A stretch of DNA of 64,000 bases from Vulcanisaeta distributa JCM 11217 (GTDB lineage Archaea > Thermoproteota > Thermoprotei > Thermoproteales > Thermocladiaceae), in the NCBI RefSeq assembly GCF_001316005.1, contig NZ_BBBJ01000001.1, forward strand, positions 62,001 through 126,000. Reading direction: 5' to 3'. Below the pieces are notes generated by a model. The model was given only the letters and a program-made list of their open reading frames with translations. It was not told the DNA's origin and did not search any database. Positions 1 to 64,000 of the stretch are shown in pieces. Within the stretch, counting starts at the first letter, position 1, and each line of letters opens with the position of its first letter. A program made the translations under genes and the position numbers.

Positions 1-1102
1 GATGTTGGCGTTTTCTTCGGTGTTGGTGCATTCACGGCACCCCCCCTTCTTTCGCTATTGTTTGGTAGGTTGGGTGATAAGTATAGTAGGAAGGCGGTTC
101 TATTACTGACGCTTGCCTTTCTGCCGATAGCCACGGCAATACTCCTAATCACTAAGTATTACCCATTGCTCCTACTTGCAGCCGCATTAGGCGGTTTCGG
201 TACCGCTGGGACGTTAGCCAGTGGTAGTGTTGGTGCTGTGGCTGCACCAGTCCAAACGGCGATATTGGCTGATAAGACGGAGGACATGGATAGTCCATAG
301 TATACGCAATATTCAACTTGGTATCTGGAACGGCATCGGCAATCGGGGCATTACTGGCTAACCTCAGCTATCGAGACGCATTCTACGCGGCCCTTGCATT
401 ATCAGCGGTTAGCCTATTCGTGGTATTACCAATTAGGGAGGAGCATAGACCCAAACAACGCGTTAATGATGATCCAAACACTAATTCTAAGGCCATAGCC
501 CAAAAGGTAAGGAGGGATTTAACGTACATAAAGAGGTTCGCGATTGTTGGTGCATTAAATGGCACAGCCCAGGGATTAATAACGCCATTTCTACCTATAA
601 TATTTAAGATGGTCCTCCACGTGAGTAATGGCGTTGTTGGCGACATATTCTTCATCGGCGGTCTTGCAGCAGCCTTCGCATCGCTCACGGCGCCAGTCCT
701 CTCGAGGATTTTCGGGCTTAGGGATGCCATAATTATTCCAAGGGTAATATCGACGATCGCCTTAATCCTCATACCATTCTCAACAACCCTTTACCTAGCC
801 GCAATAACGTATGTTGTTTACGTGATGTTTAGGGTATCATCACTGGCTCCACAGCAAGCCTTAATGATGGAGCTCGTGGGCAGGGGGCAGTAGGTCAACG
901 GTCTCTGGGGGTTAACCAAGCGGCGCGATTGTTGCCATCGGCAACGGCGACGATGGCGGCAGGCCCAATGCTCGACTACCTACCAATCCCCCCCGTACCG
1001 TTTACCATAGCCTTCATCGTGAATGTTATAAACATAGCCCTTTACAGGAGGTTCTTCCCTAACCCAAAGCCAACGCGTGGAGGAGTAACGGTAATTGAGT
1101 AA
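1..1102 (+). pseudogene. MFS transporter, 3 prime part, frame broken
   Basis: C-terminal part of a major facilitator superfamily permease; the start lies before the window. The loop motif GRLGDKYSRK (positions 61-90) is the classic MFS loop 2-3 signature, followed by hydrophobic helices. Frame changes near 291-294 (one base missing), at the G5 run 883-887 and at the G5 run 907-911; shortening both runs to four restores a continuous protein that ends at 1102 with charged residues after a last helix. A C7 run at 988-994 adds one Pro. Breaks at homopolymers favour sequencing error over a true pseudogene. Substrate unknown. Confidence 0.75.
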
Positions 1103-1105
1103 TGA

Positions 1106-1798
1106 CTAAACAACTTCAGAAGCCCTAACCTCAACACCCAACTCCCTAGCCAACTCAAGAGCCCTCCTCCTAATTACCGGACCAACAATGAGCAACCTCG
1201 GCTTCACCTTATTAACCCTCTCGTAGAGGACTCCCTCCCTATATAGTTCAGCCACGTCACCACGGTCAATACTCGCCTTATACTCAACGAGTACGTGCTC
1301 ATTATCCCTAACGAGAACATCTACATCAATAACCGAGGGGTGACCGAGTACTACGCCGTCATTGTCGTAGTACGTCCAACGCCTAACCTCATAAACCTTA
1401 AGCAGGTCACTGACGAGGTACTTAATGGACTCCCTGAAGGCTTTTTCCGCGAAAAGCCCATACCTATAGCCCAACGCCGTTACTGAGGATGTTAACTTCT
1501 CAATGCTGGTCTGCATAACGATTATGACCTCACCATGCCTCCTAACGTCTTCACTCAACGTCTCTACAATCTTCTTAAGCTCATCATGAGATTTAACAAG
1601 TGCCTCCACGGCTTTCCTTAATTCGCCTATCTCCTCGCCCTGCCTGGCAACGATATTCTTCAAATCAGATATGGCCTTAACTAGGTTGTCCACTGAGGAC
1701 TTAAGGTCGCTAATGCCCAATAGTCCCATTACCGCATACCTGAATTCCTCATCCTCCTTAAGTAACCTCAAGAGTTCCTTCCTTAGATCAAGGCCCAT
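1106..1798 (-). CDS. DUF3782-type coiled-coil protein with PD-(D/E)XK nuclease-like domain
   Basis: 230 residues. Residues about 10-110 are an amphipathic coiled coil rich in Leu, Glu and Lys. The C-terminal half carries an Asp-containing strand (DVDVLV) followed by LVEYKAS, the D...ExK arrangement of restriction-like nuclease folds, then a LLIVGP strand typical of archaeal DUF3782 proteins. The family is abundant in thermophilic crenarchaea and its role is not established; nuclease activity is an inference. It is convergent with the MFS gene and divergent from hyuB. A TATA-like element at 1823-1833 lies 25-35 bases before the ATG. Confidence 0.7.
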   Translation of the reverse strand: MGLDLRKELLRLLKEDEEFRYAVMGLLGISDLKSSVDNLVKAISDLKNIVARQGEEIGELRKAVEALVKSHDELKKIVETLSEDVRRHGEVIIVMQTSIEKLTSSVTALGYRYGLFAEKAFRESIKYLVSDLLKVYEVRRWTYYDNDGVVLGHPSVIDVDVLVRDNEHVLVEYKASIDRGDVAELYREGVLYERVNKVKPRLLIVGPVIRRRALELARELGVEVRASEVV

Positions 1799-1821
1799 AA
1801 CCTATTTGAAGTTCGCACCTA

Positions 1822-1834
1822 ATTATTTAAATCC
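1822..1834 (-). promoter_or_regulatory. TATA-like promoter of the DUF3782 gene
   Basis: The A/T stretch containing ATTTAAATA on the minus strand sits about 25-35 bases upstream of the ATG at 1798, the usual distance for leaderless crenarchaeal transcripts. Assigned by position only. Confidence 0.5.
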
Positions 1835-1847
1835 ACCCATGGCAATG

Positions 1848-1856
1848 CTTTATTAG
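1848..1856 (+). promoter_or_regulatory. TATA-like promoter of hyuB
   Basis: GCTTTATTA lies about 25-32 bases before the ATG at 1880, which supports that ATG over the TTG at 1862. A G5 run (1856-1860) follows directly. Confidence 0.4.
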
Positions 1857-1879
1857 GGGGTTTGAAGCTTATCCTTAGG

Positions 1880-3472
1880 ATGGTTTCGTGGGAACTCGTG
1901 TTTAGAGCCTCGGTGTTTATTGCTGAGGAGATGGGCGTTGCTCTGCGTAGGTCGGCCTTCTCACCAAACATACGTGAGAGGATGGATCACAGCTGTGCGA
2001 TAACGGATTCGGAGGGTAACATTGTGGCTCAGGCGGAGCACATACCGGTGCACCTGGGCTCATTCAGGGTGGGCGTTAAGAATTTACTCAATTGGCTTAG
2101 TAATGAGGGTGTTGAGCTTAGCCCTGGCGATGTAGTGATTCTCAATGACCCATACATATCCGGTACGCACTTAAATGATGTCATGGTCATGGAACCGATA
2201 TACGTAGGTAATAGGCTCATTGGCTACGTCGTTAATAAGGCTCACCATGTGGACGTTGGCGGGCCTGTGCCGGGTAGTATTAACCCCCCCAGCGCTAAGA
2301 CGATTTATGAAGAGGGTTTGGTAATACCACCGGTTAAGGTTGCGATTAGGGGTGAGTTACAGCGTGACATACTAAATATGATACTCAGTAACTTCAAGAC
2401 CCCGGAGACCGCGATTGGTGACATAACGGCTCAACTCGCCGCGAACAGAGTTGGAGTTGCCAGGGTTAGGGAGTTGGTGGAGAAGTACGGCGTTGATAAC
2501 GTCGTTAATGCGTGGAGAGAGGGTATTGAGTACGGCAGGAAGTTAGCCCTGATGGAGATTGGCAAGTGGCCCAGGGGGGGCATTTACGACGCCGTGGACT
2601 ACATGGAGCTTGGTGATGAGTTATTACCAATTAAGGTGTCTATTGAGATAGGCGAGGAGGGTGTTAAGGCCGACTTCAGTGGTACGCATGAACAGGTCGA
2701 GGCGCCAATAAACGCTGTTTATGGCGTGACATTCTCAGCCGTATCATTTGCGATAAGATCATTGATGCAAAGTGACATACCAACCAACGAGGGCTTCTAT
2801 AGCGTTATAAGCGTCATGGCGCCCGAGGGCACGCTCGTTAACCCAAGGAAGCCCGCACCAGTGAGTGGCGGTAATGTCGAGACGACGCAGAGAATTGCGG
2901 ACGTGGTCTTTAAGGCATTGGCTAAGGCACTACCTAATAGAGTACCGGCGGCTGGGTCTGGCACTATGATGAATGTAATGATAGGCGGGACATTGCCCAA
3001 TGGCGGTTACTGGGCATACTACGAAACAATTGGCGGCGGGACTGGCGGTAGGCCAGGCAAGCCTGGTGTGAGTGGTGTTCATGTGAACATGACGAATACG
3101 TTAAATACCCCCATTGAAATCGCCGAGAGACAGTACCCACTGCTATTCACGGGTTATAGGATTAGGGAGGGGGGGAGTGGTGGTGATGGACTATACCGAG
3201 GCGGTGATGGCATTATTAGGTCATTTAAGGTGCTGACTAAGGCGAGGCTATCGATAATGGCTGAGAGGTTTAGGACAAGGCCGTGGGGGGGTCTATGGGG
3301 GGGCGGTGGTGATGGAGCGCCAGGTAGAGTCACTATTAGGAGGGGGGGTAATGCTGTGGTCATTAATTTACCGAGTAAGGCGACAATAGACCTGGAGCCA
3401 GGTGATGAGGTAATAATTGAAACGCCGGGGGGGGTGGGGGGGGATACGGCTCAAGAAGGTGATTTTTATTAA
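1880..3472 (+). CDS. hyuB: Hydantoinase B / 5-oxoprolinase beta-type subunit
   Basis: About 530 residues, close to the full length of HyuB, the half of ATP-dependent N-methylhydantoinase, acetophenone carboxylase-like or 5-oxoprolinase enzymes that works with HyuA. Family blocks seen: N-terminal [16 protein letters not shown], the metal/active-site region [24 protein letters not shown], and the Gly-rich C-terminal blocks. Seven G/C runs of 7-8 insert Gly or Pro (for example 3285-3303); removing three bases each gives normal HyuB text. No hyuA is adjacent, so its partner must be elsewhere or it belongs to a single-subunit relative. The ATG at 1880 is preferred to the TTG at 1862 from promoter spacing. 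Confidence 0.85.
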
Positions 3473-3505
3473 ATTCTTAGTGAAAAAAATTGTTAAATAA
3501 AGTAA

Positions 3506-3896
3506 ATGAGCACCAGGGAGGAAATCAATACGCTAATTAGGAGGGCCAGGGACTTCTTAAGGACGGCAAATTTTCAGATGGAAAATGAGATGTATGACTT
3601 AGCCGTTTTCAACCTTGAACAAGCCCTTCAATTATTCTTAAAAGCGAAGATTCTTGAGTATGGTGCTCAGTATCCACGGACACACAGTGTGCGCTACTTA
3701 CTTAAGTTTTTACGTGATGTCGTGCCAGGTGATAAAAAAGCAAATTGTAAGTGAGTTGTTAGACAGGTATTTATTTGAACTAGGCGTGCTTGAAGATGCT
3801 TATATTGGTGCTAGGTATGTGCCAAGGGAATATACGAAGGAGGAGGCTGAAAGGTTAATTAAGGTTGTTAGTGAAATAATGAGCAGTGAATTATGA
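3506..3896 (+). CDS. HEPN domain protein (toxin partner), frame broken
   Basis: About 129 residues when read across one frame change. HEPN proteins paired with minimal nucleotidyltransferases form toxin-antitoxin modules in which HEPN is usually the RNase toxin. The four-helix HEPN pattern is visible: RARDFLRTANFQMEN, FNLEQALQLFLKA and PRTHSVRYLLKFL, with the conserved Thr-His before the third helix. The frame is lost at the A6 run 3734-3739; five A's give KKQIVSELLDRY and continue to the stop at 3896. The next gene overlaps its end by 11 bases, as is usual for this pair. Confidence 0.8.
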
Positions 3897-4203
3897 TTAC
3901 TTAATTGAGGATGCCAGGAGGAGACAGGATGTATTTAGGAATCTCAATAAATACTTACGCATTATTAAGGAGGTTATTAAGTCCTTAGATCCTAATGCCG
4001 AGGTTTATTTATTCGGTTCTGTTGCTGAAAATAAGTACGCATTATCGAGCGATATTGATGTTTTGGTGATAACCAGTGTTGATCCAGGGATTGTTCTCGA
4101 GAGACTGTGGAGAGCAGGTATTGGACCTCCCTTTGAGATCCATGTGAGAATGCCGGATAAGCTGGCTTATTATAAGAGGTTCAGTAAGTTGATTAGGGTG
4201 TGA
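3886..4203 (+). CDS. MNT-type minimal nucleotidyltransferase (antitoxin partner)
   Basis: 105 residues with GTG start overlapping the HEPN gene. The pol-beta nucleotidyltransferase core is clear: YLFGSVAENKYALSSDIDVL, matching GS-x(n)-SDIDV with both metal-binding aspartates. MNT partners of HEPN toxins are known to silence them, in characterised cases by attaching nucleotides to the HEPN protein. The protein is near the usual 100-130 residue length and shows no inflated run. Confidence 0.85.
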   Translation: MNYDYLIEDARRRQDVFRNLNKYLRIIKEVIKSLDPNAEVYLFGSVAENKYALSSDIDVLVITSVDPGIVLERLWRAGIGPPFEIHVRMPDKLAYYKRFSKLIRV

Positions 4204-4302
4204 ATACTTCATTCCGCATAATATCTACTTTTATCCTTATTCATGAATAAGGTTCCTGTGTTCTTAGATAAATTAAGGCCATTAGTATTTTGAATGGGTG
4301 CT

Positions 4303-4311
4303 ATCTTTAAA
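4303..4311 (+). promoter_or_regulatory. TATA-like promoter of the secreted protein gene
   Basis: CTTTAAAAG about 28-36 bases before the ATG at 4339, after a gene-free stretch from 4204. Called by position and composition only. Confidence 0.4.
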
Positions 4312-4338
4312 AGTTCAGGGATAAGAACTTAACTAGGA

Positions 4339-5577
4339 ATGAGGTTTCTTATGAATACGGGTTATGGTTTACGGCAGTTATTAATTGTCTCAGCAATTAC
4401 CGTAATAATCATTAGCGTTTTATTCATCATAACCCTACCGAGATCATGTACAAAACCTTCAATGGCAAATGCAATTAATAATACGAGAAACATAAAATTA
4501 ATAATCAATGCTCAGGGGATTAACGAGCCATCAATGGAAGTTATTAAATCCCTTAATTTCACGTTATCATTAACTGAAGGGCAGATAACAAAAGACCCAA
4601 GCGATTTATGTTCTTACCTGGGCTTTGTGCTTCTGGGACCTACGAATCGACCAATTAATTTTAATGGTACGTATATAATCATTTATGGTCAACATGGTTA
4701 CAGCGACTCACTTGGTAATGTTGTGGTTGATTTTTGTCTCATATGGAATGGATTAGTCTATAGAGATTTGAATGGTTTCTCAGTGGGTTATGCTCAGCTT
4801 TATAGTGTGGTTGTATATGTTCCAGGGTCCGGCGCGTATATTAAATACTTAGAGTTGTTCCAAGATGCCTACGCCTCATACGTGGCTTATGAATATGAGA
4901 TGAATAAGATAAGCGCTTCGCAATTACCTGGAGATGTTAAATGGGTAGTAAGTGGTAATAATTATAGTGTGGGTTACTGGACGATTGATTATTATACGCC
5001 ATACCCAATGCAGTGCATGGCGGTAAAGAAGTATAGGACCACCTTAACCCTAGGCTATGCAATCCAAGCGCCCTCGATCTCCTCTACATATTATTGTTCA
5101 CAAAACACAATATCATTATCAGTAAAGGCATCTAGCGTAATAACGCCGTTGAATTTCGCCGTGTATAATATAACATGGGTCTTTAAGCCCATGAGTAGGT
5201 ATTGGGCATCTCAGGAAGTAATGTATGGTGTTGAGAGTGAGGGTTATACGTATATGGGTCCTGCCAATAACCCGCAATCATTGATGTACGTGATTCCTGT
5301 GGGTGTCTCGGTTGTTGCCTATAAGCCGTTTGGGTGTACGTACTACTTGCTCGGCTTCATACCAATACCTGGCGTATTAGTTGGTCATATTGTTTACGAT
5401 GTTGATTGGTACATATGGGTGAACTCTAATGGATCAATGGGCATTCAAAGCCACGGCATGTACATACCACCGCCAGGTATAAACAAGGACTGGAAAGAAA
5501 GCCAAAGCCCATACATGGGACTCCAGGGATTTTATTACACAACGCAATGTCAACCAATCTGGTGGCTATGGTGGTAA
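4339..5577 (+). CDS. Membrane-anchored extracellular protein of unknown function
   Basis: 412 residues. A hydrophobic segment at about residues 12-34 (LLIVSAITVIIISVLFIITL) is a signal anchor; the remainder is rich in Tyr, Asn, Ser and Val with many potential N-glycosylation sites and several Cys, and it ends in a Trp-rich tail, typical of exported crenarchaeal proteins. No catalytic motif recognised. Its codon use and AT content are slightly higher than the operon genes around it. Adjacent HEPN-MNT genes do not inform its role. Confidence 0.7.
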   Translation: MRFLMNTGYGLRQLLIVSAITVIIISVLFIITLPRSCTKPSMANAINNTRNIKLIINAQGINEPSMEVIKSLNFTLSLTEGQITKDPSDLCSYLGFVLLGPTNRPINFNGTYIIIYGQHGYSDSLGNVVVDFCLIWNGLVYRDLNGFSVGYAQLYSVVVYVPGSGAYIKYLELFQDAYASYVAYEYEMNKISASQLPGDVKWVVSGNNYSVGYWTIDYYTPYPMQCMAVKKYRTTLTLGYAIQAPSISSTYYCSQNTISLSVKASSVITPLNFAVYNITWVFKPMSRYWASQEVMYGVESEGYTYMGPANNPQSLMYVIPVGVSVVAYKPFGCTYYLLGFIPIPGVLVGHIVYDVDWYIWVNSNGSMGIQSHGMYIPPPGINKDWKESQSPYMGLQGFYYTTQCQPIWWLWW

Positions 5578-5651
5578 GCATTGTTAAATGCGGGATTATT
5601 TATTTTATTTGTTTTCTTAATTAATGGCTCATAGTAATTCAATCATTGATA

Positions 5652-9090: not shown

Positions 9091-9100
9091 GGTGGTGCTC

Positions 9101-9755: not shown

Positions 9756-9756
9756 G

Positions 9757-24840: not shown

Positions 24841-26102
24841 TTACTCACCAAACTTCTCAAGAGTACCCAGGTAATTAGCTATAATATTCATCACATCAAT
24901 ACCCCCCCTAATCCTACTCCAAAAGCCCTTAGCGCAAGCCCTCTCACTGAATTGGGCAACATCATCCTTCATAACGTCAGGCCCCCACGCCATGAATGGT
25001 ACTGGGTCACCCGTGTGATCCTTAACCGTTATTGGTGTTGCATGGTCACAGGTTATGAATATGTAAGTATCGCTGGGTGCCTCCTCAAGGAACCTCCTAA
25101 TGCCAGCATCAACTCTCTCAATAATCATTGCCTTACCCCGGGCATCGCCATCATGTGACATTGAGTCTGTGGGCTTTACATGGACGAACACAAAATCATA
25201 GTTATTTAAGGCCCTAGCCGCTGCCTGGAATGCTGCCGTGAAATCATCATCCTTAGAGCCTATGTAGTTATCAACACTAATAACGTCCATACCCAATGCC
25301 CTACCAATACCCCCCCTAATTAACGCGACCCCCCCAGCATTATCGCTGGCTTAATCCTATACTTAGTACTCAATGGTTCGAAGTTCCTCAGAGAGCCAGC
25401 ACCCCCCCTGAGGAGGACCATGTTTATTGGGCCCTTACCTTCCCTTCTCCTCCTCTCATTGAATTCTGCCTTGCTTAGTTTTTCATAAACGAGTTTTGTG
25501 AATTCATTGATGTAATCAGCCGTGGTCCTGGCGTCATCGCTCAAAGCCCTAGCCTCTAAAACCTTAACGCCGGTGGCGTGTGGATCGGTATCGCTGACAT
25601 GTGGCGATACATTGCCTCTAAGGACTAGGGTACCCCTATGCTCACAGTCTGCTTATAAACAGCCTCAAATGCCATACTTACTCCTTAATATGGGCAACAC
25701 CTCGTTATTAATTATATTCTCTATTTCCCTAACCTCATCGGGATTTATGTACCTGCCACCCCTCCTATCAATGACCACTAAGTCATTATTGACGGTGGCT
25801 ACGTTCGTCCTAAAGGCAACATCCCCGGGATTAAGTGTTAATCCTGCGCCCAATGCCTCAAACGGTCCCCCCCTGCCAGGGTAATATTTATACGGGTCGT
25901 AGCCAAAGATTGCTAGGTGAGCCGTGTCACTACCTGGCCTAATGCCTGGCGATATTACGTCCATAAGACCACAGGACCCCCCCTCAGCAACTAACCTATC
26001 AATTGTGGGTTTAACGGCAAATTCCAACGGAGTCTTTCCACCAAGCTCCTTAACTGGTCGGTCAGCACAGCCGTCTAAAATAACCAGTAATGCCCTAGGC
26101 AT
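24841..26102 (-). CDS. apgM: 2,3-bisphosphoglycerate-independent phosphoglycerate mutase, frame broken
   Basis: About 415 residues. Interconverts 3- and 2-phosphoglycerate. Blocks: LVILDGCADRPVKELGGKTP, GSDTAHLAIFGYDPY, YPGRGPFEALGAGL after correction, DPHATGVKVLEARALS, FVHVKPTDSMSHDGD and FITCDHATPITVKDHTGDP (metal ligands). Breaks: a missing G near 25645 (CAG ACT GTG GAG restores EHRGTLVLRGNV) and C7 25329-25335, where five restores LGVALIRGIGRALGMDV. In-frame extra residues at 24902, 25308, 25402, 25867 and 25977. Confidence 0.9.
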
Positions 26103-32704: not shown

Positions 32705-32731
32705 TGATTTTGCATGGGGGGGTGATTAATC

Positions 32732-35700
32732 ATGCCAATGGATAATCCTGACATTGAGCATGGCAAGATGCTGGACTCAGTGTCAATACCAATCCTAAGG
32801 TCTAAGAGGGCATACACGGCATTTCCATCATCAGACGACAGGTGGGAGCTGGTAAGGGCATTCATTAGGGAGGGCGGCCTTGTTAGGCATCAGATTGACT
32901 CATTCAATGACTTCGTTGAGAAGAAGCTGCAGGAGATAGTTAATGAGAATAACATAATTGAGACGGAGGTTAAGGGCCTCTACATAAAGCTTGAGAGGAT
33001 CGAGGTTGGGAAGCCAAGGGTTAGGGAGCAGACGCCAGTGAGCACATTCTATACCCAATGGAGGCCAGGCTCAGGAATCTGACCTACGCGGCGCCGCTTT
33101 ACCTAACAATGGTGCTTTACGTAAATGATGAGGAGGTTGATAGGCAGAAGGTCTACATAGGCGACTTACCAATAATGGTCAGGTCCAAGTTCTGTAACTT
33201 ATACGGACTAAAGCGGCAGGAATTAATTAGTAAGCTTGAGGATCCGGACGACCCAGGCGGTTACTTCATAATTAATGGTAGTGAAAGGGTCATCGTGTCC
33301 CAGGAGGATCTAGCCCCGAATAAGCCATTTTACGATAAGGGCGACAAGGCCAGCATTACTCACGTGGCTAAGGTAATATCGATTGGCGCTGGGTATAAGA
33401 CCACGGTCACTGTTGAGAGGCATAAGGATGGAATTATATACGTGACATTCCCAGCAATAGCCACTAGGATACCATTCCCAATAGTGATGAGGGCGCTTGG
33501 CCTAGAGACGGATGAGGACATAGTGCTTGCGGTGAGTGATGATCCTGACATACAGAATGAGTTATTGCCATCACTACAGTTCTCCGTGCAGATAGCTAGC
33601 ACTGTTGATGATGCATTGGACTTTATAGGTAGTAAGGTGGCTATTGGCCAACCCAGAGAGGTTAGGATTGAGAGGGCTAAGCAGGTGCTTGATAAGTACT
33701 TCCTACCTCACCTAGGCACTACCGAGGATGCCAGGATAAAGAAGGCCTTAATGGTTGGGCAGATGGTTAAGGGCGTTATTGAGATGTACCTTGGGCGTAG
33801 GCAGCCGGATGATAAGGACCACATAGCTAACAAGAGGGTTAGGCTCGTTGGTGACCTAATGGCTCAATTATTCAGGGCTGTGTTTAGGCAGGTGCTTCAG
33901 GACATTAGGCAGCAATTGGAGAGGCATTACTCGAGGGGGGGTAAGATACCGAGTCTTGTCACGTTGGTTAGGGCCGACATAATAACTGAGAGGATTAGGC
34001 ATGCCTTGGCCACAGGTAATTGGATAGGTGGTAGGACGGGGGGGGTATCGCAGATGCTTGATAGGACCAACATTATGTCGACATTAAGCCACTTAAGGAG
34101 GGTCGTGTCAAACCTAAGCAGGACACAACCTCATTTCGAGGCCAGGGACCTACACCCAACCCAGTGGGGTAGGCTTTGTGCAATTGAGACTCCAGAGGGT
34201 CAGAATTGCGGCTTGGTGAAGAACCTGGCATTACTTGCTACGATTACAGTCGGCGTCGATGAAAATGAGGTAGAGAAGATGCTCTATGACCTGGGTGTTG
34301 TGCCGATATTAAAGGCTAGGAAGGAAGGCGTTAAGGTACCGAGGTTTACTTAAATGGTAGATTAATAGGAATACATACCGACCCAGACAAGCTAGTAAGT
34401 ACCATTAGGGAGATGAGGAGGAGGGGCCAAATTAATCACGAAATTAATGTTGCTAGGATAAGGAATGGCTACCTTGATGAGGTCAGGGTTAACTGTGACG
34501 GCGGTAGGCTTAGGAGACCGCTAATTATTATTGAGAACGGAAAGCCAAAGCTAAGGCCGGAGCATATTGAGAAGTTGAGGAAAGGCGAGTGGACTTGGAA
34601 TGACTTAATTAGCAATGGCATAATTGAGTATCTTGATGGCGATGAGGAGGAGAATGCACTGGTGGCTATTAACCCTGAGGAGGACATGAGCAGGTACACG
34701 CACATGGAGGTCATACCATCAGTCATGATCGGTGCCGTGGCCTCAATAATACCATACGCAGAGCATAACCAATCACCTAGGAACATATATGAGGCCGCAA
34801 TGGCAAAGCAAAGCCTTGGATTCCCAGCAGCCAACTATAGGTTTAGGATGGACAGTAGAGGCCACCTACTTATTTATCCTGAGAGGCCGTTGGTAATAAC
34901 GAGAGGAATAGAACTTAACGGCTACCTTGAGAGACCCGCTGGACAGAACGCGGTGGTTGCATTATTAACATACACAGGTTATAACATGGAAGACGCGGTC
35001 ATCCTAAATAAATCAGCCATTGAGAGGGGGGGTATGTATAGGAGTGTATTCTTTAGGACGTACGAGACAGAGCAAATGAGGTATCCTGGCGGTGAGGAGG
35101 ATAGGATAGAGATACCATCGGCTGAGGTTAGGGGCTATAAAGGACCTGAGGCCTATGCGCACCTGGACGAGGATGGTATTGTATCCCCTGAGGTATTTGT
35201 ATCGGGTGGTGAGGTATTGATAGGTAAGACGTCACCACCAAGGTTCTATGGAGTATATACAGAAACAGTGGTGTCCAGCGCCAGGAGGGATTCATCAATA
35301 ACCGTTAGGCGTGGTGAGAAGGGCATTGTTGATAGTGTGGTGGTTACGGAGACTAATGAGGGTTATAAACTCGTTAAGGTTAAGGTCAGGGAGTTGAGAG
35401 TGCCAGAGCTTGGTGATAAGTTCGCCAGTAGGCATGGCAGAAGGGCGTCATGGGGGGGATGATGATACCAATGCAAGACATGCCATTCACGGAGGACGGA
35501 ATAACGCCAGACATAATTGTTAATCCGCATGCATTACCGAGTAGAATGACTGTTGGTCAATTACTCGAGTCCATGGCAGGTAAAGTCGCAGCGTTGAGGG
35601 GCGTGATGATTGACGCAACACCATTTGAGGGCGTAACCGAGGAGGAGCTCAGGGACTTACTCATTAAGTCTGGTTTTAGGTGGGATGGTAAGGAAGTGAT

Positions 35701-36207: not shown

Positions 36208-38892
36208 ATGGTAGCCCAGACCGAGAAGGTATCCGTTAAGGAGGAGGAAATACCGCTTAAGGCTATAAAGGCCATTAAGTTCTCAATTCTTTCACCAGAC
36301 GTCATAAGGTCGATGTCTGTCATGGAGATAACGACATCGGAGACCTACGATGAGGCAGGTAGGCCAATGGTCGGTGGGTTAATGGATAGGAGATTGGGCG
36401 TCGTTGAGCCTGGCGCTAGGTGTGAGACCTGCGGCAATCCACCTGATAAGTGCCCTGGTCATTTCGGTAGGATAGAGCTTGCAAGGCCGGTAATACATGT
36501 TGAGTATGCCAAGTACATCCATGACCTACTCAGGACGACCTGTAGGGAGTGTGGTAGGATATTATTAACGGATGAGGAGATTGAGAAATATAGTAAGAGG
36601 TTGGCTAGGTTGAGGGTTAGGTGGAAGTTACTTGCTGATAGGCTTATTGAGAGGATTAGGAAGAAGGCCATGGAGAGGACGGTGTGCCCGCACTGCGGTG
36701 CTAAGCAGTATAAGATTAGGTTTGAGAGGCCGTACACCTTCTATGAGGAGAAGGAGAATGGTGTATTGGAGAAGCTTGATCCAATGAAGATTAGGGAGAG
36801 GCTTGAGAAGATTCCGGATAGTGACCTGGAGTTATTGGGCTGGGACCCGAAGTTTGCAAGGCCTGAGTGGGCCGTTTTAACGGTGTTACCAGTACCGCCA
36901 CCGCAGGTTAGACCCTCAATACAACTGGAGACTGGGCAGAGGAGTGAGGATGACTTAACGCATAAGTTAGTTGATATTGTTAGGGTTAATGAGAAGCTTA
37001 GAACGGCCATTGACTCGGGCGCACCAAGTAGCGTGGTTGACCAATTATGGGACCTACTTCAGTATCACGTGGCCACCTACTTCAATAATGAATTACCGAA
37101 CCTACCACCTGTTAAGCATAGGAGTGGTAGGCCTCTGAAGACCCTAGCCCAGAGGCTTAAGGGTAAGGAGGGTAGGTTCAGGGGAAGTCTATCAGGTAAG
37201 AGGGTTGACTTCTCATCAAGGACTGTGATCAGCCCAGACCCTAACCTAAGCATTAATGAGGTTGGCGTTCCAATTGATGTTGCTAAGATACTGACGGTAC
37301 CAATGACGGTTACTGAGTGGAACCTTGAGTTGGCGAGGCAGTTGGTACTTAATGGACCTGAGGTGTGGCCGGGCGCTAATTACGTGATTTACCCGGATGG
37401 TAGGAGGGTCGACCTTAGGTACTTCAGGGATAGGCGTGAGTTGGCCAATAAGTTAGCCCCAGGATTTGTCGTTGAGAGGCATTTAATGAATGGTGACATT
37501 GTATTGTTCAATAGGCAGCCAAGCCTTCATAGGATGTCTATGATGGGTCACATAGTTAGGGTATTACCTGGCAGGACATTTAGGCTTCACTTAGCGGTTT
37601 GCCCACCGTATAACGCTGATTTTGATGGGGGGGATGAGATGAACCTACATGTGCCTCAGAATGAGGAGGCCAGGGCAGAGGCAAAGACGTTAATGCTTGT
37701 CCAGAATCACATAATAACGCCTAGGTACGGTGGTCCAATAATAGGCGCTAGGCAGGACTACATAACGGGTGGTTACCTACTTACTAGGAAGGATACGTTC
37801 ATAAACAGGGAATTGCTCATGTACTTATTAGCCGCGGCTAACTATGACGGTGAAATAGATGAACCAGCCATAATGCATCCGAAGGAGCTTTGGACTGGCA
37901 AGCAGGTAATATCGATGCTCCTACCCAAGGACCTAAACTGGGTTCAAGCGACGGCAATTAAGGAGAGCTGTAAAGATCCCTATAACTGCTACACTGATGA
38001 GTACATAGTCGTGGTTAACGGTTATATGGCAACTGGAGTCCTTGATAAGAAGTCCATAGGTGCTGAGCAGGTTGACTCGCTATGGCACGTGATAGTTAAG
38101 AGATACGGCAATGACTATGCAAGGAGGTGGGTTGACTCGATATTAAGGGCGCTGCTTAGGTTCCTAGACCTTAGGGGATTCTCAATGGGTATTGATTCGT
38201 TGGAGATGCCACCCGACAGTTATAAGGAGCTTGAGAAGCTGTATGAGGAGAGTGAGAAGAAGGTCCTTGATTACATACAGAGGTTTAGGGAGGGTAAGCT
38301 CGAGGCTGAGCCTGGCTTAACTGTTGAGGAGACGTTGGAAAATGATGTAACGATTGAGTTAAGCCGCGTGAGGGAGGCCGCGGCCCGTGTTGCGGAGAGG
38401 TACATTAATAAGGATGGTGAGGCCTACATAATGGCGAAGACCGGCGCTAGGGGGGGTAGTATCGTTAATATAACGCAGATGGTCGCCATGATTGGGCAAC
38501 AGACAATAAGGGGGGGTGAGCGCTTCAAGAGAGGATTCATTGGAAGGACTACGGCGCACTTCGAACCTGGTGATCTCGGCCCAATAGCTAAGGGATTCGT
38601 TAGGAGCAACTTCAAGGTTGGTCTCTCACCACTTGAGTTCTTCTTCCATGCGGCCGGCGGTAGGGATGGCCTAGTGGATACTGCCGTAAGGACTGCCCAA
38701 AGTGGTTACATGCAGAGGAGGCTCATTAATGCGTTGCAGGATATTTACGTTGCTTATGATGGGACAGTTAGGAATGCCTCAGGCTCCATAATACAGACTA
38801 AGTACGCTGAGGATGGCATTGACGTTAGTAAGAGTGATCACGGCAGGCTTAATCTAGATGAAATATTTAGGAGGGCGGGTATAAGTAGGTGA
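36208..38892 (+). CDS. rpo1N: RNA polymerase subunit Rpo1N (A prime)
   Basis: 894 residues, the N-terminal two thirds of the largest subunit. Zinc sites CETCGNPPDKCPGHFGRIEL and CRECGR...CPHCG; LSGKRVDFSSRTVISPDPNL; FNRQPSLHRMSMMGH; catalytic Mg loop NADFDG(G)DEMNLHVPQ at residues 469-484 with one Gly too many from the G7 run 37627-37633; bridge-helix region and the region around KTGARG(G)SIVNITQM, also inflated (38450, 38510). The stop overlaps the rpo1C start (TGATG). Confidence 0.96.
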   Translation: MVAQTEKVSVKEEEIPLKAIKAIKFSILSPDVIRSMSVMEITTSETYDEAGRPMVGGLMDRRLGVVEPGARCETCGNPPDKCPGHFGRIELARPVIHVEYAKYIHDLLRTTCRECGRILLTDEEIEKYSKRLARLRVRWKLLADRLIERIRKKAMERTVCPHCGAKQYKIRFERPYTFYEEKENGVLEKLDPMKIRERLEKIPDSDLELLGWDPKFARPEWAVLTVLPVPPPQVRPSIQLETGQRSEDDLTHKLVDIVRVNEKLRTAIDSGAPSSVVDQLWDLLQYHVATYFNNELPNLPPVKHRSGRPLKTLAQRLKGKEGRFRGSLSGKRVDFSSRTVISPDPNLSINEVGVPIDVAKILTVPMTVTEWNLELARQLVLNGPEVWPGANYVIYPDGRRVDLRYFRDRRELANKLAPGFVVERHLMNGDIVLFNRQPSLHRMSMMGHIVRVLPGRTFRLHLAVCPPYNADFDGGDEMNLHVPQNEEARAEAKTLMLVQNHIITPRYGGPIIGARQDYITGGYLLTRKDTFINRELLMYLLAAANYDGEIDEPAIMHPKELWTGKQVISMLLPKDLNWVQATAIKESCKDPYNCYTDEYIVVVNGYMATGVLDKKSIGAEQVDSLWHVIVKRYGNDYARRWVDSILRALLRFLDLRGFSMGIDSLEMPPDSYKELEKLYEESEKKVLDYIQRFREGKLEAEPGLTVEETLENDVTIELSRVREAAARVAERYINKDGEAYIMAKTGARGGSIVNITQMVAMIGQQTIRGGERFKRGFIGRTTAHFEPGDLGPIAKGFVRSNFKVGLSPLEFFFHAAGGRDGLVDTAVRTAQSGYMQRRLINALQDIYVAYDGTVRNASGSIIQTKYAEDGIDVSKSDHGRLNLDEIFRRAGISR

Positions 38893-40949: not shown

Positions 40950-41396
40950 ATGCCCGGTAAAAAATCACCGCTTGGCATGTTCGCTGCCAGGGGGGGATTG
41001 AGAGAGAAGAGGAAGAAGTTTAGATGGAGTGACACGTATTATAAGAGGAGGATGCTAGGCATAGCCAAGAAATTCGACCCACTTGAAGGAGCGCCAATGG
41101 CTAGAGGAATAGTCCTTGAGAAGGTCGGTGTTGAGGCAAGAAAACCAAACGCAGCCGTGAGGAAGTGCGTCAGGGTCCAAATAACTAAGAATGGTAAGGT
41201 GGTTACGGCATTCGTGCCATGGGACGGCGGGTTAAACATAATAAATGAGCATGATGAGGTTATAATCGAGAGGATAGGCGGTCCTGAGGGTAGGGCTTAT
41301 GGAGACCTACCCGGCGTTAGGTTTAGAGTCATAATGGTTAATGGCGTTAGCTTAAAGGCCATTTTGCAAGGTAAGAAGCAGAAACCCGTTAGGTAA
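40950..41396 (+). CDS. rps12: Ribosomal protein uS12
   Basis: About 148 residues. GMFAARG(G)[48 protein letters not shown] (the decoding-site loop), [13 protein letters not shown]7 at 40990-40996 adds a Gly near the N terminus. Start ATG 40950 (MPGKKSPLG) rather than GTG 40941. Confidence 0.95.
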
Positions 41397-54754: not shown

Positions 54755-54780
54755 GATCATCAATATTTTTTGGTGAATAT

Positions 54781-55565: not shown

Positions 55566-55569
55566 ATAT

Positions 55570-58276: not shown

Positions 58277-58281
58277 TAATT

Positions 58282-58290
58282 ATTTAAATA
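58282..58290 (+). promoter_or_regulatory. TATA-like promoter of aIF6
   Basis: ATTTAAATA 28-36 bases before the ATG at 58318. Confidence 0.5.
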
Positions 58291-58317
58291 TTTGCTAAGT
58301 TAATTAGGTCGAGAGAA

Positions 58318-58997: not shown

Positions 58998-58999
58998 AG

Positions 59000-60457
59000 T
59001 TACTCAGCGAGTTCCCTGGCCTTGGTAAGGCACTCCTCACCAAGTCTATGGGCGCTTGCTAATAAATCACTTATTAACTTCTCAACCCTAACCCTCAACC
59101 TACTTGGTATTACATCCATGCTTACATATGACATGTACTCATCATAATCAACGACCTTAGCCTCACTTGAATCCCACCTCTTCACAACATCGACTGCTAA
59201 GTCGATGTAGAGAATATTACTGCCCGTGAACTCAATTGGCGTGTTAATATTTATGTAGATACCCTTGGGTCTCCAGGCATGGTCAACATAGACATGAGTT
59301 AAGTACTCATTGCCTATTGAGGAGCAGGATATCGCCATGTCACCCTCCTCCTTAGGAAGACCGAGACCATCAAGATAACCACCACCCCCCCTCAACCTAC
59401 GCATTAAAACGATGTCATTAGGATCAAGTTTAAGCACATCCGCACTACCGAGCCTGAGAACCTCACCACTAGGCTTAATATGCACAATACCAACTCTATA
59501 CTTCCTACTCATCAACTGTCTCATAAACTCGGCACTGAACCCAGCCCTATCGCTACAACGACTAAGCAATGCCTCAACGAGATCCAACAACGCGGTATTC
59601 CTCTTTAAGGTCTTATACGTGTGATGACCAATTATTGTTGGCATGACATTATTCCTGACATTATCAAGAAGGAGCTTAGCCCTGCCATTAAGCATAACCT
59701 CAACAATGCACTCACCATCCTGGAGCACCGTGTAAGGAGTTGACGACTTACTAGCTGACTCAACTTCATTAAGCATATTTATTGCTCTCTCAATTTCCTT
59801 AACGGCCTTATCCTCATCCAGGAATTGAGCACTACTCCTCCACTTAATGCTATAACCACTCAACCTACCAACGTACTTAAGACCAACCTTAAGCAGCGCT
59901 TGCTTAGCCTCATAATCCTTAATATGCCTACTAAATAATACGGTACCACTGCCCGGCACTATGGAGACATACTCAGTATCAACTAACGCCAGGCACAGCA
60001 ACCAACTCATCACTTGGGTAAACCCTAGTCCTACTTATAATGACGGGAATCACATCACCATCATTATACGCGCCACCTATCGCCTTAAGTACGGCCCTAA
60101 CGCCATTACCAACGTCAACGAAATAATTACTATTAACAACATTGACGACACCTATGACGACCCTATGAAGTGGAACCACCGACCTCCAAACCAACGCCTC
60201 CTCCTCAACAACCCTAAGCAGGTTATTAACAACATCATTAACCACACCGCACTTGCCCATTACCGTTAACGCCCCCAGGAACCCTCTCGGAGTCCTTAAT
60301 CGTAACGTCAGGCGCAGAATTATCAACATTAATACCAAACCTACTGATTATCACGTCAGAGGCCTGCACAATGGTATAACCAAGATCAAGCACTAACTTA
60401 CTAATTGCAGTCGCGTACTTACCCCCTAATCCTAACCCTATAGCTATTTTTACTCAC
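59000..60457 (-). CDS. FAU-1 RNA-binding/ribonuclease protein (S1 + DUF402), frame broken
   Basis: About 485 residues. N-terminal RVRIRGKYATAISKLVLDLG, the FAU-1/RNase E-G-like opening, SFxDVTIKDSE-like DVTIKDSER, an S1-type domain (VVIGVVNVVNSNYFVDVGNG) and a C-terminal DUF402 domain (YLTHVYVDHAWRPKGIYINI). FAU-1 binds AU-rich RNA and is reported to process pre-5S rRNA in Thermococcales. Breaks: C5 60422-60426, C5 60272-60276 and one base near 59983. C7 at 59386 adds a Gly. GTG at 60457 is the start that fits the family. Confidence 0.88.
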
Positions 60458-60503
60458 AGAAAATCGACTTATTAAGGGCTAAAATAATTTACGACCATGT
60501 AGC

Positions 60504-60893
60504 TTAACGGCAAATACCATACTTAGCATACGAGGCGATTACTAAGCCGAGAAACAACACAGATATAGCTAATGGGAATGTAAGTATAAGCGTTGAGCCA
60601 ATGACCGGCTGCCTAACGGCCATGTAAACAGATAGTGGCAAACAAACTATGAAAAATAGAACCATAAGCACACTAAATATGATGCTCCATTTACGCTCTT
60701 CAACACTCGGTATCCTTGGTGGCTTAACTGCAACGAAGGAAAACACTAGGAATACTAAGAATGCCACCAACCCTATGAAATTAGACGTGTTGATTATCCA
60801 CGTAATTAAAAAGAACACGGCAATGACTAAGTAAATAATCATAAACCTCCTACTCATTACGGCATTACCGCAACTAAACTCTTGACTATTCAT
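60504..60893 (-). CDS. Four-helix membrane protein, unknown
   Basis: 129 residues with four hydrophobic helices (MIIYLVIAVFFLITWII, IGLVAFLVFLVFSFVAV, WSIIFSVLMVLFFIVCLPLS, TLILTFPLAISVLFLGLVIA). A Pro-rich cytoplasmic or external loop VKPPRIPSVEER divides them. No family recognised. The ATG at 60893 or the internal ATG giving MSRRFM are both possible. Confidence 0.6.
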   Translation of the reverse strand: MNSQEFSCGNAVMSRRFMIIYLVIAVFFLITWIINTSNFIGLVAFLVFLVFSFVAVKPPRIPSVEERKWSIIFSVLMVLFFIVCLPLSVYMAVRQPVIGSTLILTFPLAISVLFLGLVIASYAKYGICR

Positions 60894-60933
60894 ATACTAA
60901 AGTAATGCGTAATATCCAATTAAATGTTTTCCA

Positions 60934-61414
60934 TTAACTGGTTCCCGAAATGCTCCTTGCAAGGTTCACGAGAGCCTCAATGTCGGGTAAGTCCCTCCTG
61001 ACCTGGTCAGGCCTTAGCCTCGCCTCATGGAAACCCTCAACATGCAAAAACCATGCACTCTTCCACCACCACCTAACCTCCCTCCTGCCAAGCCTATCGG
61101 CAGTATTATCCACCGCATCAAATAATAGTTGTGCCGTCCACCTACCAATCTCGGAGGCCTTCTTTGCCTCATCTAGGCCCAGTGCAATGGCCATTGCCTT
61201 GATGGCCTCCTCGGCAGCCTTGTAGAGCTTCTCGCTGGCTTGCACGGGGGTCCTTATCAATGAGTTCCTTACCTTCATCTAGGAATTTCTCGGCGAGTTC
61301 AAGGTGAGCTTTGCTTGTTGTTGATGGGTCAAGTGATAGTGCCTTAGCTATTAGGTCCACTATGTCTATTCCCTTTCTCTCTGCCTCGTCGATTATCAGC
61401 TTTGGTATTTCCAC
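60934..61414 (-). CDS. PaREP1 family protein, frame broken
   Basis: About 160 residues. HLELAEKFLDEGKELIDKDP then VQASEKLYKAAEEAIKAMAI is the PaREP1/HEPN-like helical core of proteins expanded in Pyrobaculum and relatives. The frame breaks at G5 61246-61250 on the plus strand; four restores DPVQASEKLY. Function unknown; the family is dispersed and lineage-specific in Thermoproteales. Its presence supports the taxonomic placement. Confidence 0.85.
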
Positions 61415-61497
61415 GATTTACATTGTTGATGCGGAGTTAAAAATGTTTATTCGCAGTAACGTTAGTGCCTTATTAATTGAAGTGTTACTATATTGAC

Positions 61498-62218
61498 GTG
61501 AGTATTAAGTGCATTGCCTCAGGCCAGAAGGGTGGTGTTGGTAAGAGCACGCTGACAATACTGACGGCTAGGGTCGCACCTGCGCTTGGCATTAGGCTAG
61601 CCATTATTGACTTAGCCATGGGTAATCCAAGCACGTCCCTCAACCTACTTGGTAATATACCGAGACATACCCTGGCCACCTACGTAATTAATGCGTCTAA
61701 GATTAATGAGGTCATTCACGTAGTTCCAACAGAGCATGGACCTGTTTACCTAGTGCCTTCAGGATACGGGGATTTAACGCTTATTAATGAGTATGGGGGG
61801 GATTTTAAGGAGAGGTTGGGCTCCTTGATTAAGTATTTGATTGATAGGGTGGTTGATCATGTGGTTATTGATTTCCCATCGTTTGAGCCAAGCTAGATAA
61901 CGTGCTAAATGAGGCATTGAGTGAGTGCGATATTATTTATCCAGTGGGTATTCAGGACCTCGGCTCGGTGGTTGCCTGAGGAATTTAGTGCATTTTGTTA
62001 GGAGGTTTTCGATTAATGTCGGTCGACCCGTGATTAATATGTTTAGGGAGTCCTTGGGTAGGCAGTGGGTTGCCGCCGTTGGTAAGCTCGTTGGTTTGGA
62101 GCCTAGCGTGGTTCATTATGATCCCTGGGTCATTAGGTGGGTTCATGATGGTGCTGGTCAGTATGGTGTTGGTGTTAAGGAGGCTTTGTCATACGTAATT
62201 AGGGAGATTCTAAGTTAG
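61498..62218 (+). CDS. ParA/MinD-like ATPase, frame broken
   Basis: About 240 residues. Deviant Walker A SGQKGGVGKSTLTILTARVA with the signature Lys, Walker B-like HVVIDFPSFEP, and a C-terminal region VGRPVINMFRESLGRQWVAA. Likely a membrane- or DNA-positioning ATPase. Breaks: one A missing near 61890 (EPKLDNVLNEAL) and one G near 61967-61973 (GSVGCLRNLVHFV). Start GTG 61498 preferred to TTG 61477. G7 at 61795 adds a Gly. Partner ParB not adjacent. Confidence 0.82.
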
Positions 62219-62269
62219 TAGTTGTTACGCAAAATGGTTTTAAGGCATTAATTACTAATCATTAATGCG

Positions 62270-63130
62270 GTGTCCGTTGAGGAATTTCGAGGCATCACCG
62301 TGGATTCTGAGGATGGTGAGAGGTGGCTACTTATTGCCGACACTCACGTCGGCCTGGAGGTTGAGCTTGGTAAGAAGGGTGTTCGGATACCTAGCCAATC
62401 AGCCAGGATAGCACAGCTAGTCCTGGACTTCGCCGAGAGGACCGGGGCAACTTCGCTGGCTATACTCGGTGATGTTAAGCATGAGATAGCGAGCATTGTC
62501 GAGAGCGCCAGGGAGGTTAGGGAATTCCTAAATAGAATTAGCAGCAGATTCAATAAGGTGGTTTTGGTTAAGGGTAATCATGATGGGAATCTTGACTTAA
62601 TATTGAGTAGCGACGCAAAGCCCAATGTATACCTCATAGACTCCAGGGGGGGCTTCATAATAAGGAGTAGGGATGGCAAAAACCTCCTACTGCTTCACGG
62701 AAATTCAAAGCCTAGGATTGAGGATTTCATGAATGCTGACGTAATAATAATGGGACACACCCACCCAGCAATACTCATACAAGACGTAACTGGTTACGTA
62801 ATGAGGGCACCCGTCATCGTTAAGGTACGTGTCGATAAGTCCGTGTTCGGTAAGAACATGTATAACACCGAAATAGGCGCCACGGGGGGGCCCATGAACA
62901 TAATAGTACTACCAACCTTTAACCCATTGACCGTGGGCATGGACGTATTCGAGATATTCCCAAAGGACCTCGTCGAGGTCGAGACAATACTCCACTACGC
63001 ACGCACCTGGGAAATACTGAGCAACATAGAGGTTTACCTAACCGACATGACATACCTCGGTACAATGGATGTACTAGCCAGGATAAGGGAGGAGTTTGGT
63101 GAGGGTGGCTACGATGTTAATTGGTTATGA
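62270..63130 (+). CDS. Archaeal Mre11/SbcD-related metallophosphoesterase
   Basis: 286 residues, GTG start. WLLIADTHVGLEVELGKKGV (metal site 1), LAILGDVKHEIAS (GDVKHE, hallmark of the archaeal SbcD-related family), LVKGNHDGNLDL and IIMGHTHPAI complete the phosphoesterase site. The family is distinct from canonical Mre11, shorter and lacking the capping domain. G7 runs at 62646 and 62884 insert Gly. No Rad50 is next to it; the only Rad50-like gene of the window is 45 kb away. Overlaps the next gene by four bases. Confidence 0.88.
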   Translation: MSVEEFRGITVDSEDGERWLLIADTHVGLEVELGKKGVRIPSQSARIAQLVLDFAERTGATSLAILGDVKHEIASIVESAREVREFLNRISSRFNKVVLVKGNHDGNLDLILSSDAKPNVYLIDSRGGFIIRSRDGKNLLLLHGNSKPRIEDFMNADVIIMGHTHPAILIQDVTGYVMRAPVIVKVRVDKSVFGKNMYNTEIGATGGPMNIIVLPTFNPLTVGMDVFEIFPKDLVEVETILHYARTWEILSNIEVYLTDMTYLGTMDVLARIREEFGEGGYDVNWL

Positions 63131-63399
63131 ATGTTATTTTACACGTGCTTAAAGAAGCCTATGAATTTAAGGATTTACCGTTAAGAGAGCTAATTAAGTG
63201 GTTTTATGATAGGTTGTTGGCAGGGATTTTTAAGGCTATTATCATTAGCTCTACCGTGTTTGGTATTGTATTACTTATTTCCGCATTAGTCTTGACTGTG
63301 AAACAGTGTGTACACACTTCTTTCCTTATACTATATTATCCTAATAATGGCTATCGTGTTAATGGCGAACTGCTCATTAATCGTGTAAGTAAGCCTTAA
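63127..63399 (+). CDS. Single-helix membrane protein, unknown
   Basis: About 90 residues: N-terminal amphipathic LHVLKEAYEFKDLPLRELIK, one membrane helix ISSTVFGIVLLISALVL, short external tail. Overlaps the phosphoesterase stop (TTATGA), hence ATG 63127. No family recognised. Confidence 0.5.
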   Translation: MNVILHVLKEAYEFKDLPLRELIKWFYDRLLAGIFKAIIISSTVFGIVLLISALVLTVKQCVHTSFLILYYPNNGYRVNGELLINRVSKP

Positions 63400-63426
63400 A
63401 TTATTGTCACCGTTAATCATTATGTT

Positions 63427-63864
63427 ATGAAGAACTTAAGGTCTCTTGTATTGAGTAGAGAGTTTAGGTTTGGTGTTGCCTTTTTAGTTATTGGTATAGT
63501 ATTGTTTATGATAACGGTGTTCCTTAAGCCTACTAGTGTGTTAAATGATGGATTTTATGGAGGGCTTATTTCATTATCCATTGAATTACTGTTAATAGGC
63601 TTGATGCTTATATTAAGCATGTATATTACGGCTGGAGGAAACGCATTAATCATTAACTGCGGTATGGCTAAGAAATTAATTGATGGTATTTCCGGCACCA
63701 CAGCATTGCTGGTTATTTGGGTCCCAATTATTTTATCAATATATCATATAACGATAAACTCACCAATAGCTATAGTACTTATTACACTAACTGGCGTAAG
63801 CTTCTTTGCCTGGGCCTATGTATATGGCTATACGAGGAAACATTGCTGGGGGGGTAAACCTTAA
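63427..63864 (+). CDS. Four-helix membrane protein, unknown
   Basis: 145 residues: FRFGVAFLVIGIVLFMITVF, IELLLIGLMLILSMYI, ALLVIWVPIILSIYHI and VLITLTGVSFFAWAYVYGY. Its N terminus resembles that of the next partial gene, suggesting a tandem duplication. G7 at 63848 adds a Gly near the C terminus. No family recognised. Confidence 0.55.
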   Translation: MKNLRSLVLSREFRFGVAFLVIGIVLFMITVFLKPTSVLNDGFYGGLISLSIELLLIGLMLILSMYITAGGNALIINCGMAKKLIDGISGTTALLVIWVPIILSIYHITINSPIAIVLITLTGVSFFAWAYVYGYTRKHCWGGKP

Positions 63865-63889
63865 AGTATTTTTGTTTAGATTATGAAAT

Positions 63890-64000
63890 ATGAGATGGTG
63901 CGCCCTTAAGAATGCGTTCAATTGGTTCATTAGGTATAGTATTGGTTTTATAGTGACCGGTATTGTATTATTCATGGCGCTACCATACCTTAAGCTGATC
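63890..64000 (+). CDS. Partial membrane protein, paralogue of the preceding gene
   Basis: ATG at 63890 opens a frame that runs off the window: MRWCALKNAFNWFIRYSIGF then IVTGIVLFMALPYLKLI. The Arg-Tyr/Phe-x-x-x-x-x-x-x-GIVLFM pattern matches the first helix of the gene at 63427, so the two are likely duplicates. Confidence 0.5.
   Translation, partial: MRWCALKNAFNWFIRYSIGFIVTGIVLFMALPYLKLI

What the first reader, a model, noticed from the sequence alone, without database searches (positions are those of the whole stretch)
1..64000. Bimodal G/C homopolymer lengths: about 105 runs of exactly 7
By hand count the window has about 105 G7/C7 runs and six G8/C8 runs, but only about 17 of length 5 and about five of length 6, while normal G4 runs also persist. 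A single mode at 7 is not expected from composition or random slippage. Wherever a conserved motif gives the true length, it is 4 (sometimes 5), so most runs carry +3. Most likely a systematic consensus or base-calling artefact of this assembly; a biological G-tract expansion would be without precedent.
Basis: partly seen in the sequence, partly recalled or inferred. Interest (0 to 1): 0.9.

Follow-up and report, generated by a model that had tools for sequence, protein, structure and literature searches.

The report
Sequencing artefact lengthening G/C runs
The many runs of exactly seven G or C in this archaeal genome are almost certainly not real DNA: most are runs of four (a few of five or six) that faulty sequencing lengthened, so this record should not be used to study G-runs until it is checked.

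Summary
The count is right: 104 G7/C7 and 7 G8/C8 runs against 57 of length 4, 20 of length 5 and 5 of length 6; A/T runs are normal. It is an assembly artefact. The genome is a Vulcanisaeta or close kin with 3,857 runs of exactly seven. At 42 of 42 window runs of seven with a clean comparison, relatives have 4; the one comparable run of eight is 5. Thousands of such runs occur only in this genome, in G003 (V. distributa JCM 11216) and in G020 of another genus. They also interrupt rRNA genes. The decisive result is spatial: nearby G-runs agree on being short or long, while nearby G- and C-runs disagree, and both effects fade by about 200 bp in all three genomes. That is the length of a read, not of a gene. 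One base (G or C, not both) is over-called on reads at runs of 4 or more, and the consensus follows the locally dominant strand. A sister JCM draft was made on an Ion Torrent PGM; the window's own platform is inferred. Two archaeal G-quadruplex surveys list JCM drafts as outliers and may have counted this defect.

The parts
1..64000. All 111 G or C runs of length 7 or 8, spread over the whole window; starts and lengths are listed
   Evidence: counts and coordinates; same density genome-wide
32716..32722 (+). G7; five relatives (G008, G004, G006, G010, G002) have G4
24902..24908 (+). C7; four relatives (G008, G004, G006, G010) have C4
25310..25316 (+). C7; three relatives (G008, G004, G010) have C4
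25402..25408 (+). C7; four relatives (G008, G004, G006, G010) have C4
37627..37633 (+). G7 inside the RNA polymerase A' gene; three relatives (G008, G010, G002) have G4
38510..38516 (+). G7 inside the RNA polymerase A' gene; three relatives (G008, G010, G002) have G4
40990..40996 (+). G7; three relatives (G008, G004, G002) have G4
34038..34045 (+). G8 inside the RNA polymerase B gene; one relative (G010) has G5. The only run of 8 with a clean comparison
34335..34336 (+). GG where four relatives have GGG: a one-base deletion next to the end of the first RNA polymerase B reading frame; a second kind of error, not the G7 kind
35436..35437 (+). GG where four relatives have GGG: another one-base deletion next to the end of the next reading frame

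Best explanation
The G7/C7 runs are a sequencing artefact. Shown: runs that are 4 (sometimes 5 or 6) in relatives are written as 7 or 8 in about six of ten cases, runs of 3 or fewer are not lengthened this way and A/T runs are spared; whether a given run is short or long is shared by neighbouring runs of the same base, and reversed for neighbouring runs of the complementary base, over about 200 bp. Inferred from that: at read level exactly one of the two bases, G or C, is over-called when the run is 4 or longer. A genomic G-run is then wrong on reads of one strand and right on reads of the other, and the consensus takes the value of the strand that happens to dominate there, which gives two modes, 4 and 7, instead of a smear. 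Inferred: the reads were single-end Ion Torrent PGM reads of about 200 bases from a JCM (RIKEN) draft-genome batch. Speculative (about 0.4): the cause of the sharp threshold at 4 and of the single faulty base is a mis-trained per-nucleotide homopolymer recalibration in the instrument software; that such a step starts at runs of about 4 is recalled, not looked up.
For: (1) Relatives: in the window 42 of 42 cleanly comparable runs of 7 are 4 in every relative compared there, and 1 of 1 run of 8 is 5 (43 of 111 long runs could be compared). Per relative: 10 of 10 (G008), 12 of 12 (G004), 11 of 11 (G006), 9 of 9 (G010), 13 of 13 (G002), 8 of 9 (G005). Over 209,761 aligned bases, 212 sites with 4 in G008 read 7 at 116 and 4 at 70; of 2,001 sites with 3, none reads 5 or more. 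(2) Non-coding: in the LSU rRNA stretch, 30 runs of 7 face 4 (22), 5 (7) or 6 (1) and 10 runs of 8 face 4 to 6 in G008. (3) Distribution: thousands only in G000, G003 and G020 of 61 relatives, and only in G000 and G003 of 398 genomes drawn from the phylum, where the next highest is 340. (4) Read-length footprint: in each of three genomes the same-base correlation is positive and the opposite-base correlation negative in all three bins up to 150 bp, outside the range of 200 permutations (18 of 18 bins), and inside that range in 24 of 24 bins beyond 200 bp. Fitted length 264 +- 21 bp. A simulation of strand-majority consensus at 20x with 180-base reads gives 65% long runs and correlations close to those seen. 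(5) No dependence on coding strand: 772 of 1166 long with G on the coding strand, 284 of 449 with C, 127 of 184 outside long frames. (6) Platform: PMC9872577 (whole text) says the JCM 11219 draft BBBK01 was Ion Torrent PGM; PMC4064037 (whole text) gives PGM plus Newbler 2.8 for sister JCM drafts with reads and coverage that work out to about 200 bases per read.
Against: No raw reads were available, so the strand explanation is deduced from the consensus. The name and platform of the window's own genome were not found; JCM origin is inferred from the shared signature with JCM 11216. Two other JCM drafts, G002 (JCM 16159) and G005 (JCM 14467), lack the signature, so it is not general to that source. 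The published description of PGM errors (PMC3623719, passages) says deletions, not insertions, dominate at runs of two or more, so +3 over-calls are not the usual PGM error. One comparison with G005 gave 3, not 4, for a run of 7. G000 keeps a small correlation of 0.055 (s.e. 0.019) at 600 to 1000 bp. There is a weak context effect: runs followed by C (for G) are long in 0.50 of cases against 0.58 to 0.61 otherwise.
Confidence: 0.97

Rival explanations
1. Real G-tract expansion: a mutational process in these archaea lengthens GGGG to GGGGGGG, with +3 favoured because it keeps reading frames.
For: The commonest change is +3, which keeps frame; three genomes of one family show it.
Against: The mode of 7 is as strong in rRNA, where no frame is kept, and outside long frames (127 of 184 long). 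Two carriers share a genus with many non-carriers and the third is in another genus. No genetic process explains opposite states of G and C runs within about 200 bp and independence beyond.
Confidence: 0.01
2. Pure consensus (assembler) fault without any read error: copies of a run placed at either end of a gap are counted twice, so 4 becomes 4+4-1 = 7.
For: Would give exactly 7 from 4.
Against: It predicts 9 from 5 and 11 from 6, whereas 5 becomes 7 or 8 and 6 becomes 7 or 8; it would also affect A/T runs, which it does not; and it does not predict opposite states of G and C runs.
Confidence: 0.05
3. Both G and C are over-called on reads, and runs that stay at 4 are simply the better-covered ones.
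For: Both G and C runs are long at similar rates.
Against: It predicts a positive correlation between nearby G and C runs; the observed one is negative in all nine bins up to 150 bp.
Confidence: 0.02
4. Phase-variable tracts or selected G-quadruplex motifs.
For: Long G-runs raise G-quadruplex scores: 3.05 predicted motifs per kb here against 1.38 in G008, by my own short version of the G4Hunter rule.
Against: About 1.9 runs per kb over the genome, absent from most close relatives, the same in rRNA and tied to a read-length footprint.
Confidence: 0.01

Closest known systems
Flow-based (Ion Torrent PGM, 454) homopolymer errors
   Same: Errors sit in homopolymer runs, depend on base and on strand, and leave frameshifts; strand-asymmetric indels in PGM data are reported in PMC3623719 (passages). 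G/C runs shorter than in G008 are more frequent in G000, G003, G002 and G005 (0.29 to 0.52 per kb) than in G010, G004 and G006 (0.00 to 0.10 per kb).
   Different: The usual error is plus or minus one, and under-calling dominates at longer runs (PMC3623719, passages). Here the change is mostly +3, only at runs of 4 or more and only for G/C.
Phase-variable poly-G tracts of bacteria (recalled)
   Same: Poly-G runs of about 7 to 10.
   Different: Those are few and sit in particular genes (recalled); these are everywhere, including rRNA, and follow read strand.
Apparent G-run outliers among JCM archaeal drafts in G-quadruplex surveys
   Same: [quoted passage not shown] PMC7565180 (passages) ranks three JCM genomes among those with over 6 motifs per kb.
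   Different: I did not hold those genomes and could not test them for the footprint.

Membership tests
Sequencing artefact (strand-linked homopolymer over-call) | True length differs in independently sequenced relatives | tested here: met
   42 of 42 runs of 7 in the window are 4 in the relatives compared; G005 gave 8 of 9
Sequencing artefact (strand-linked homopolymer over-call) | Affects coding, non-coding and rRNA alike | tested here: met
Sequencing artefact (strand-linked homopolymer over-call) | State correlates over a read length, with opposite sign for complementary bases | tested here: met
   in G000, G003 and G020
Sequencing artefact (strand-linked homopolymer over-call) | Raw reads show the miscall on one strand | not testable with these tools
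   no reads held
Ion Torrent PGM / Newbler draft of the JCM batch | Platform stated for the record | tested here: inconclusive
   stated for sister BBBK01 and other JCM drafts; not found for the window's record or for JCM 11216
Ion Torrent PGM / Newbler draft of the JCM batch | Excess of one-base G/C deletions | tested here: met
   0.39 per kb in G000 against 0.00 to 0.10 in G010, G004, G006, all measured against G008; A/T runs show no such excess (0.17 against 0.05 to 0.21)
Biological G-tract expansion | Long runs shared by close relatives by descent | tested here: not met
   Of 11 other genomes of the genus only G003 has them; at 16 G000 runs of 7 compared with JCM 11216, 10 are 7 there and 6 are 3 to 5
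Biological G-tract expansion | rRNA spared | tested here: not met

The most novel reading that the evidence does not exclude
A single run- or software-level fault, over-calling of exactly one nucleotide at runs of 4 or more, marks a batch of public archaeal drafts from unrelated lineages, can be recognised from the consensus alone by the opposite-phase footprint of G and C runs, and has been counted as biology in published G-quadruplex surveys.
Probability: 0.5. Interest if true: 0.35.

Novelty: not a real feature. Interest (0 to 1): 0.13.

Why it matters
It is a data-quality result. Three species-representative genomes of one archaeal family carry thousands of false G/C insertions, which add residues to proteins, break rRNA genes and about double apparent G-quadruplex density, so surveys of G-runs, phase variation or G-quadruplexes that include them are biased. 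The G/C phase test needs no reads and could be used to screen other drafts.

Tried and rejected
Considered and rejected: real expansion, an assembler that counts a run twice, over-calling of both bases, and coding-strand effects (see rivals). Context around the run explains little. Rfam and ARAGORN on the window found no RNA genes, so rRNA was taken from elsewhere in the genome: no SSU rRNA was found in G000, and an LSU rRNA match only in three pieces at the start of contig C10. A search for literature on homopolymer recalibration found no paper with four of the five terms. No description of this G4-to-G7 defect was seen in the listings (titles and abstract starts; most of those papers were not opened). 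G020 is not named here: it could be a Thermocladium, but its sampled G+C (0.497) differs from the 53.14% printed for T. modestius JCM 10088. The genomes with 200 to 340 runs of seven were not examined.

I then corrected one count in the observation check (20, not 18, of the family genomes hold 0 to 8 runs) and added the comparison with G005 that gave 3.
Full report
Observation. The window has 104 G or C runs of exactly 7 and 7 of length 8, but only 57 of length 4, 20 of 5 and 5 of 6; A/T runs fall off smoothly. The whole genome (2,076,046 bases, 19 contigs, completeness 67%) has 3,857 runs of exactly seven. In 584,000 bases of it the G/C counts for lengths 3 to 8 are 10944, 616, 202, 87, 1046, 137, and the A/T counts for 3 to 7 are 9752, 1618, 521, 62, 2.

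What the genome is. The window's RNA polymerase A' protein has its best relatives, 90 to 95% identical, in genome records titled Vulcanisaeta (6 of the 13 loci), hyperthermophilic archaea of hot springs. From contig lengths, G003 is V. distributa JCM 11216 (NZ_BBBI), G002 is JCM 16159 (NZ_BBDN) and G005 is JCM 14467 (NZ_BBDM). From genome lengths, G008 is the finished V. distributa IC-017 (2,374,137 bp; abstract start, and passages) and G010 the finished V. souniana IC-059 (2,432,148 bp; whole text).

Who shares it. Of 61 genomes in the relatives search, three have thousands of such runs: G000 (3,857), G003 (4,803) and G020 of another genus (7,958); of the other 22 genomes of the family, 20 have 0 to 8 and two have 43 and 119. 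Of 398 genomes drawn from the phylum, only G000 and G003 have thousands, and the next highest has 340 (G020 was not in that draw). All three carriers have low completeness (67, 67 and 47%), but so have some non-carriers (G002, 63%).

True length. In the window, 43 of the 111 long runs could be compared cleanly with at least one of five relatives: 42 of 42 runs of seven are 4 in every relative compared and the single run of eight is 5. An earlier comparison that also used G005 gave 8 of 9 with 4 and one with 3. Over 209,761 aligned bases of contig C1, 212 sites with 4 in G008 read 3 (4 sites), 4 (70), 5 (14), 6 (6), 7 (116) and 8 (2) here; 13 sites with 5 read 4 (1), 5 (4), 7 (2) and 8 (6); of 2,001 sites with 3, 1,962 stay 3, 38 are shorter and one is 4. 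At A/T runs of 4, 172 of 177 are unchanged. G003 behaves the same against G008: of 219 sites with 4, 127 read 7 and 69 read 4. G008 was itself sequenced by 454 and Newbler (passages), but G010 was made from Illumina and Nanopore reads and agrees with it: 91 of 92 G008 runs of 4 are 4 in G010.

Not coding, not selection. In the LSU rRNA stretch of this genome (contig C10, about the first 2,280 bases), 30 runs of seven face 4 (22), 5 (7) or 6 (1) in G008 and 10 runs of eight face 4 (1), 5 (6) or 6 (3), while 12 runs of 4 are unchanged. The SSU rRNA loci of G020 (14 runs of seven: 10 face 4 and 4 face 5) and G003 (15 runs of seven, flanks included: 13 face 4 and 2 face 5) are affected too. That a ribosome could not carry so many insertions is inference from general knowledge. 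Runs are long at the same rate with G on the coding strand (772 of 1166), with C on it (284 of 449) and outside long frames (127 of 184).

The footprint. If reads over-call only one of the two bases, a genomic G-run is wrong on one strand and a C-run on the other, so nearby G- and C-runs should be in opposite states and nearby runs of the same base in the same state, over one read length. That is what is seen (replicated). In G000 the same-base correlation is 0.51, 0.41, 0.26, 0.01 and the opposite-base one -0.47, -0.34, -0.23, -0.16 for 0-30, 30-80, 80-150 and 150-200 bp. G003 gives 0.51, 0.32, 0.24, 0.18 and -0.78, -0.39, -0.38, -0.12; G020 gives 0.60, 0.38, 0.34, 0.14 and -0.54, -0.34, -0.25, -0.09. 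All 18 values up to 150 bp lie outside the range of 200 permutations; of the six at 150-200 bp only one does (G020, same base); all 24 beyond 200 bp lie inside. A triangular-overlap fit gives 264 +- 21 bp. In G000 a small value of 0.055 (s.e. 0.019) remains at 600-1000 bp, unexplained. A simulation of consensus by strand majority (20x, 180-base reads, 90% over-call, threshold 0.4) gives 65% long runs, same-base 0.54, 0.38, 0.18, 0.01 and opposite-base -0.42, -0.33, -0.17, -0.02 at 15, 55, 115 and 175 bp; these parameters were chosen by hand among four sets tried. Which base is over-called on the reads cannot be told from the consensus.

Source. PMC9872577 (whole text) says the JCM 11219 draft BBBK01 came from an Ion Torrent PGM. 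PMC4064037 (whole text) describes JCM drafts made with PGM and Newbler 2.8; its read counts, sizes and coverages work out to about 200 bases per read (my arithmetic). No call gave the platform of BBBI (JCM 11216) or of the window's genome. G/C runs shorter than in G008 are more frequent in G000 (0.39 per kb), G003 (0.34), G002 (0.52) and G005 (0.29) than in G010 (0.09), G004 (0.00) and G006 (0.10), while A/T runs show no such excess. In the window, one-base G deletions at 34335 and 35436 lie at the ends of consecutive RNA polymerase B reading frames, so frameshifts, and probably the low completeness, come from these and not from the +3 runs. The usual PGM error at longer runs is deletion (PMC3623719, passages), and G002 and G005 lack the G7 signature, so the fault looks specific to a run or software version. 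A mis-trained homopolymer recalibration is my guess from recall; one search found no paper for it.

Consequences. A survey of G-quadruplexes in Archaea lists Thermocladium modestius JCM 10088, Thermococcus celer JCM 8558 and Methanoculleus chikugoensis JCM 10825 among genomes with more than 6 per kb (PMC7565180, passages), and another reports many double G-runs in three distant JCM archaea (PMC8044849, one passage). Whether those carry this defect was not tested.

Noticed in passing
window 34335 and 35436: One-base G deletions (GGG to GG, against four relatives each) at the ends of consecutive RNA polymerase B reading frames; 11 frame-changing run differences backed by at least two relatives were found in the parts of the window that could be compared.
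   Followed up: partly
G002 and G005 (L002, L017, L011, L020): JCM drafts with low completeness (63 and 81%) and more G/C deletions than finished genomes, but without the G7 signature.
   Followed up: partly
published G-quadruplex surveys PMC7565180 and PMC8044849: JCM archaeal drafts appear as outliers in G-run content; some may carry this artefact.
   Followed up: partly
G014 and G017 (genus of G020): 43 and 119 runs of exactly seven G/C, above the 0 to 8 of the other 20 family genomes; not examined further.
   Followed up: no
G000:C10:131-2166: Only part of an LSU rRNA gene is present, at a contig start, and no SSU rRNA was found in this genome.
   Followed up: no
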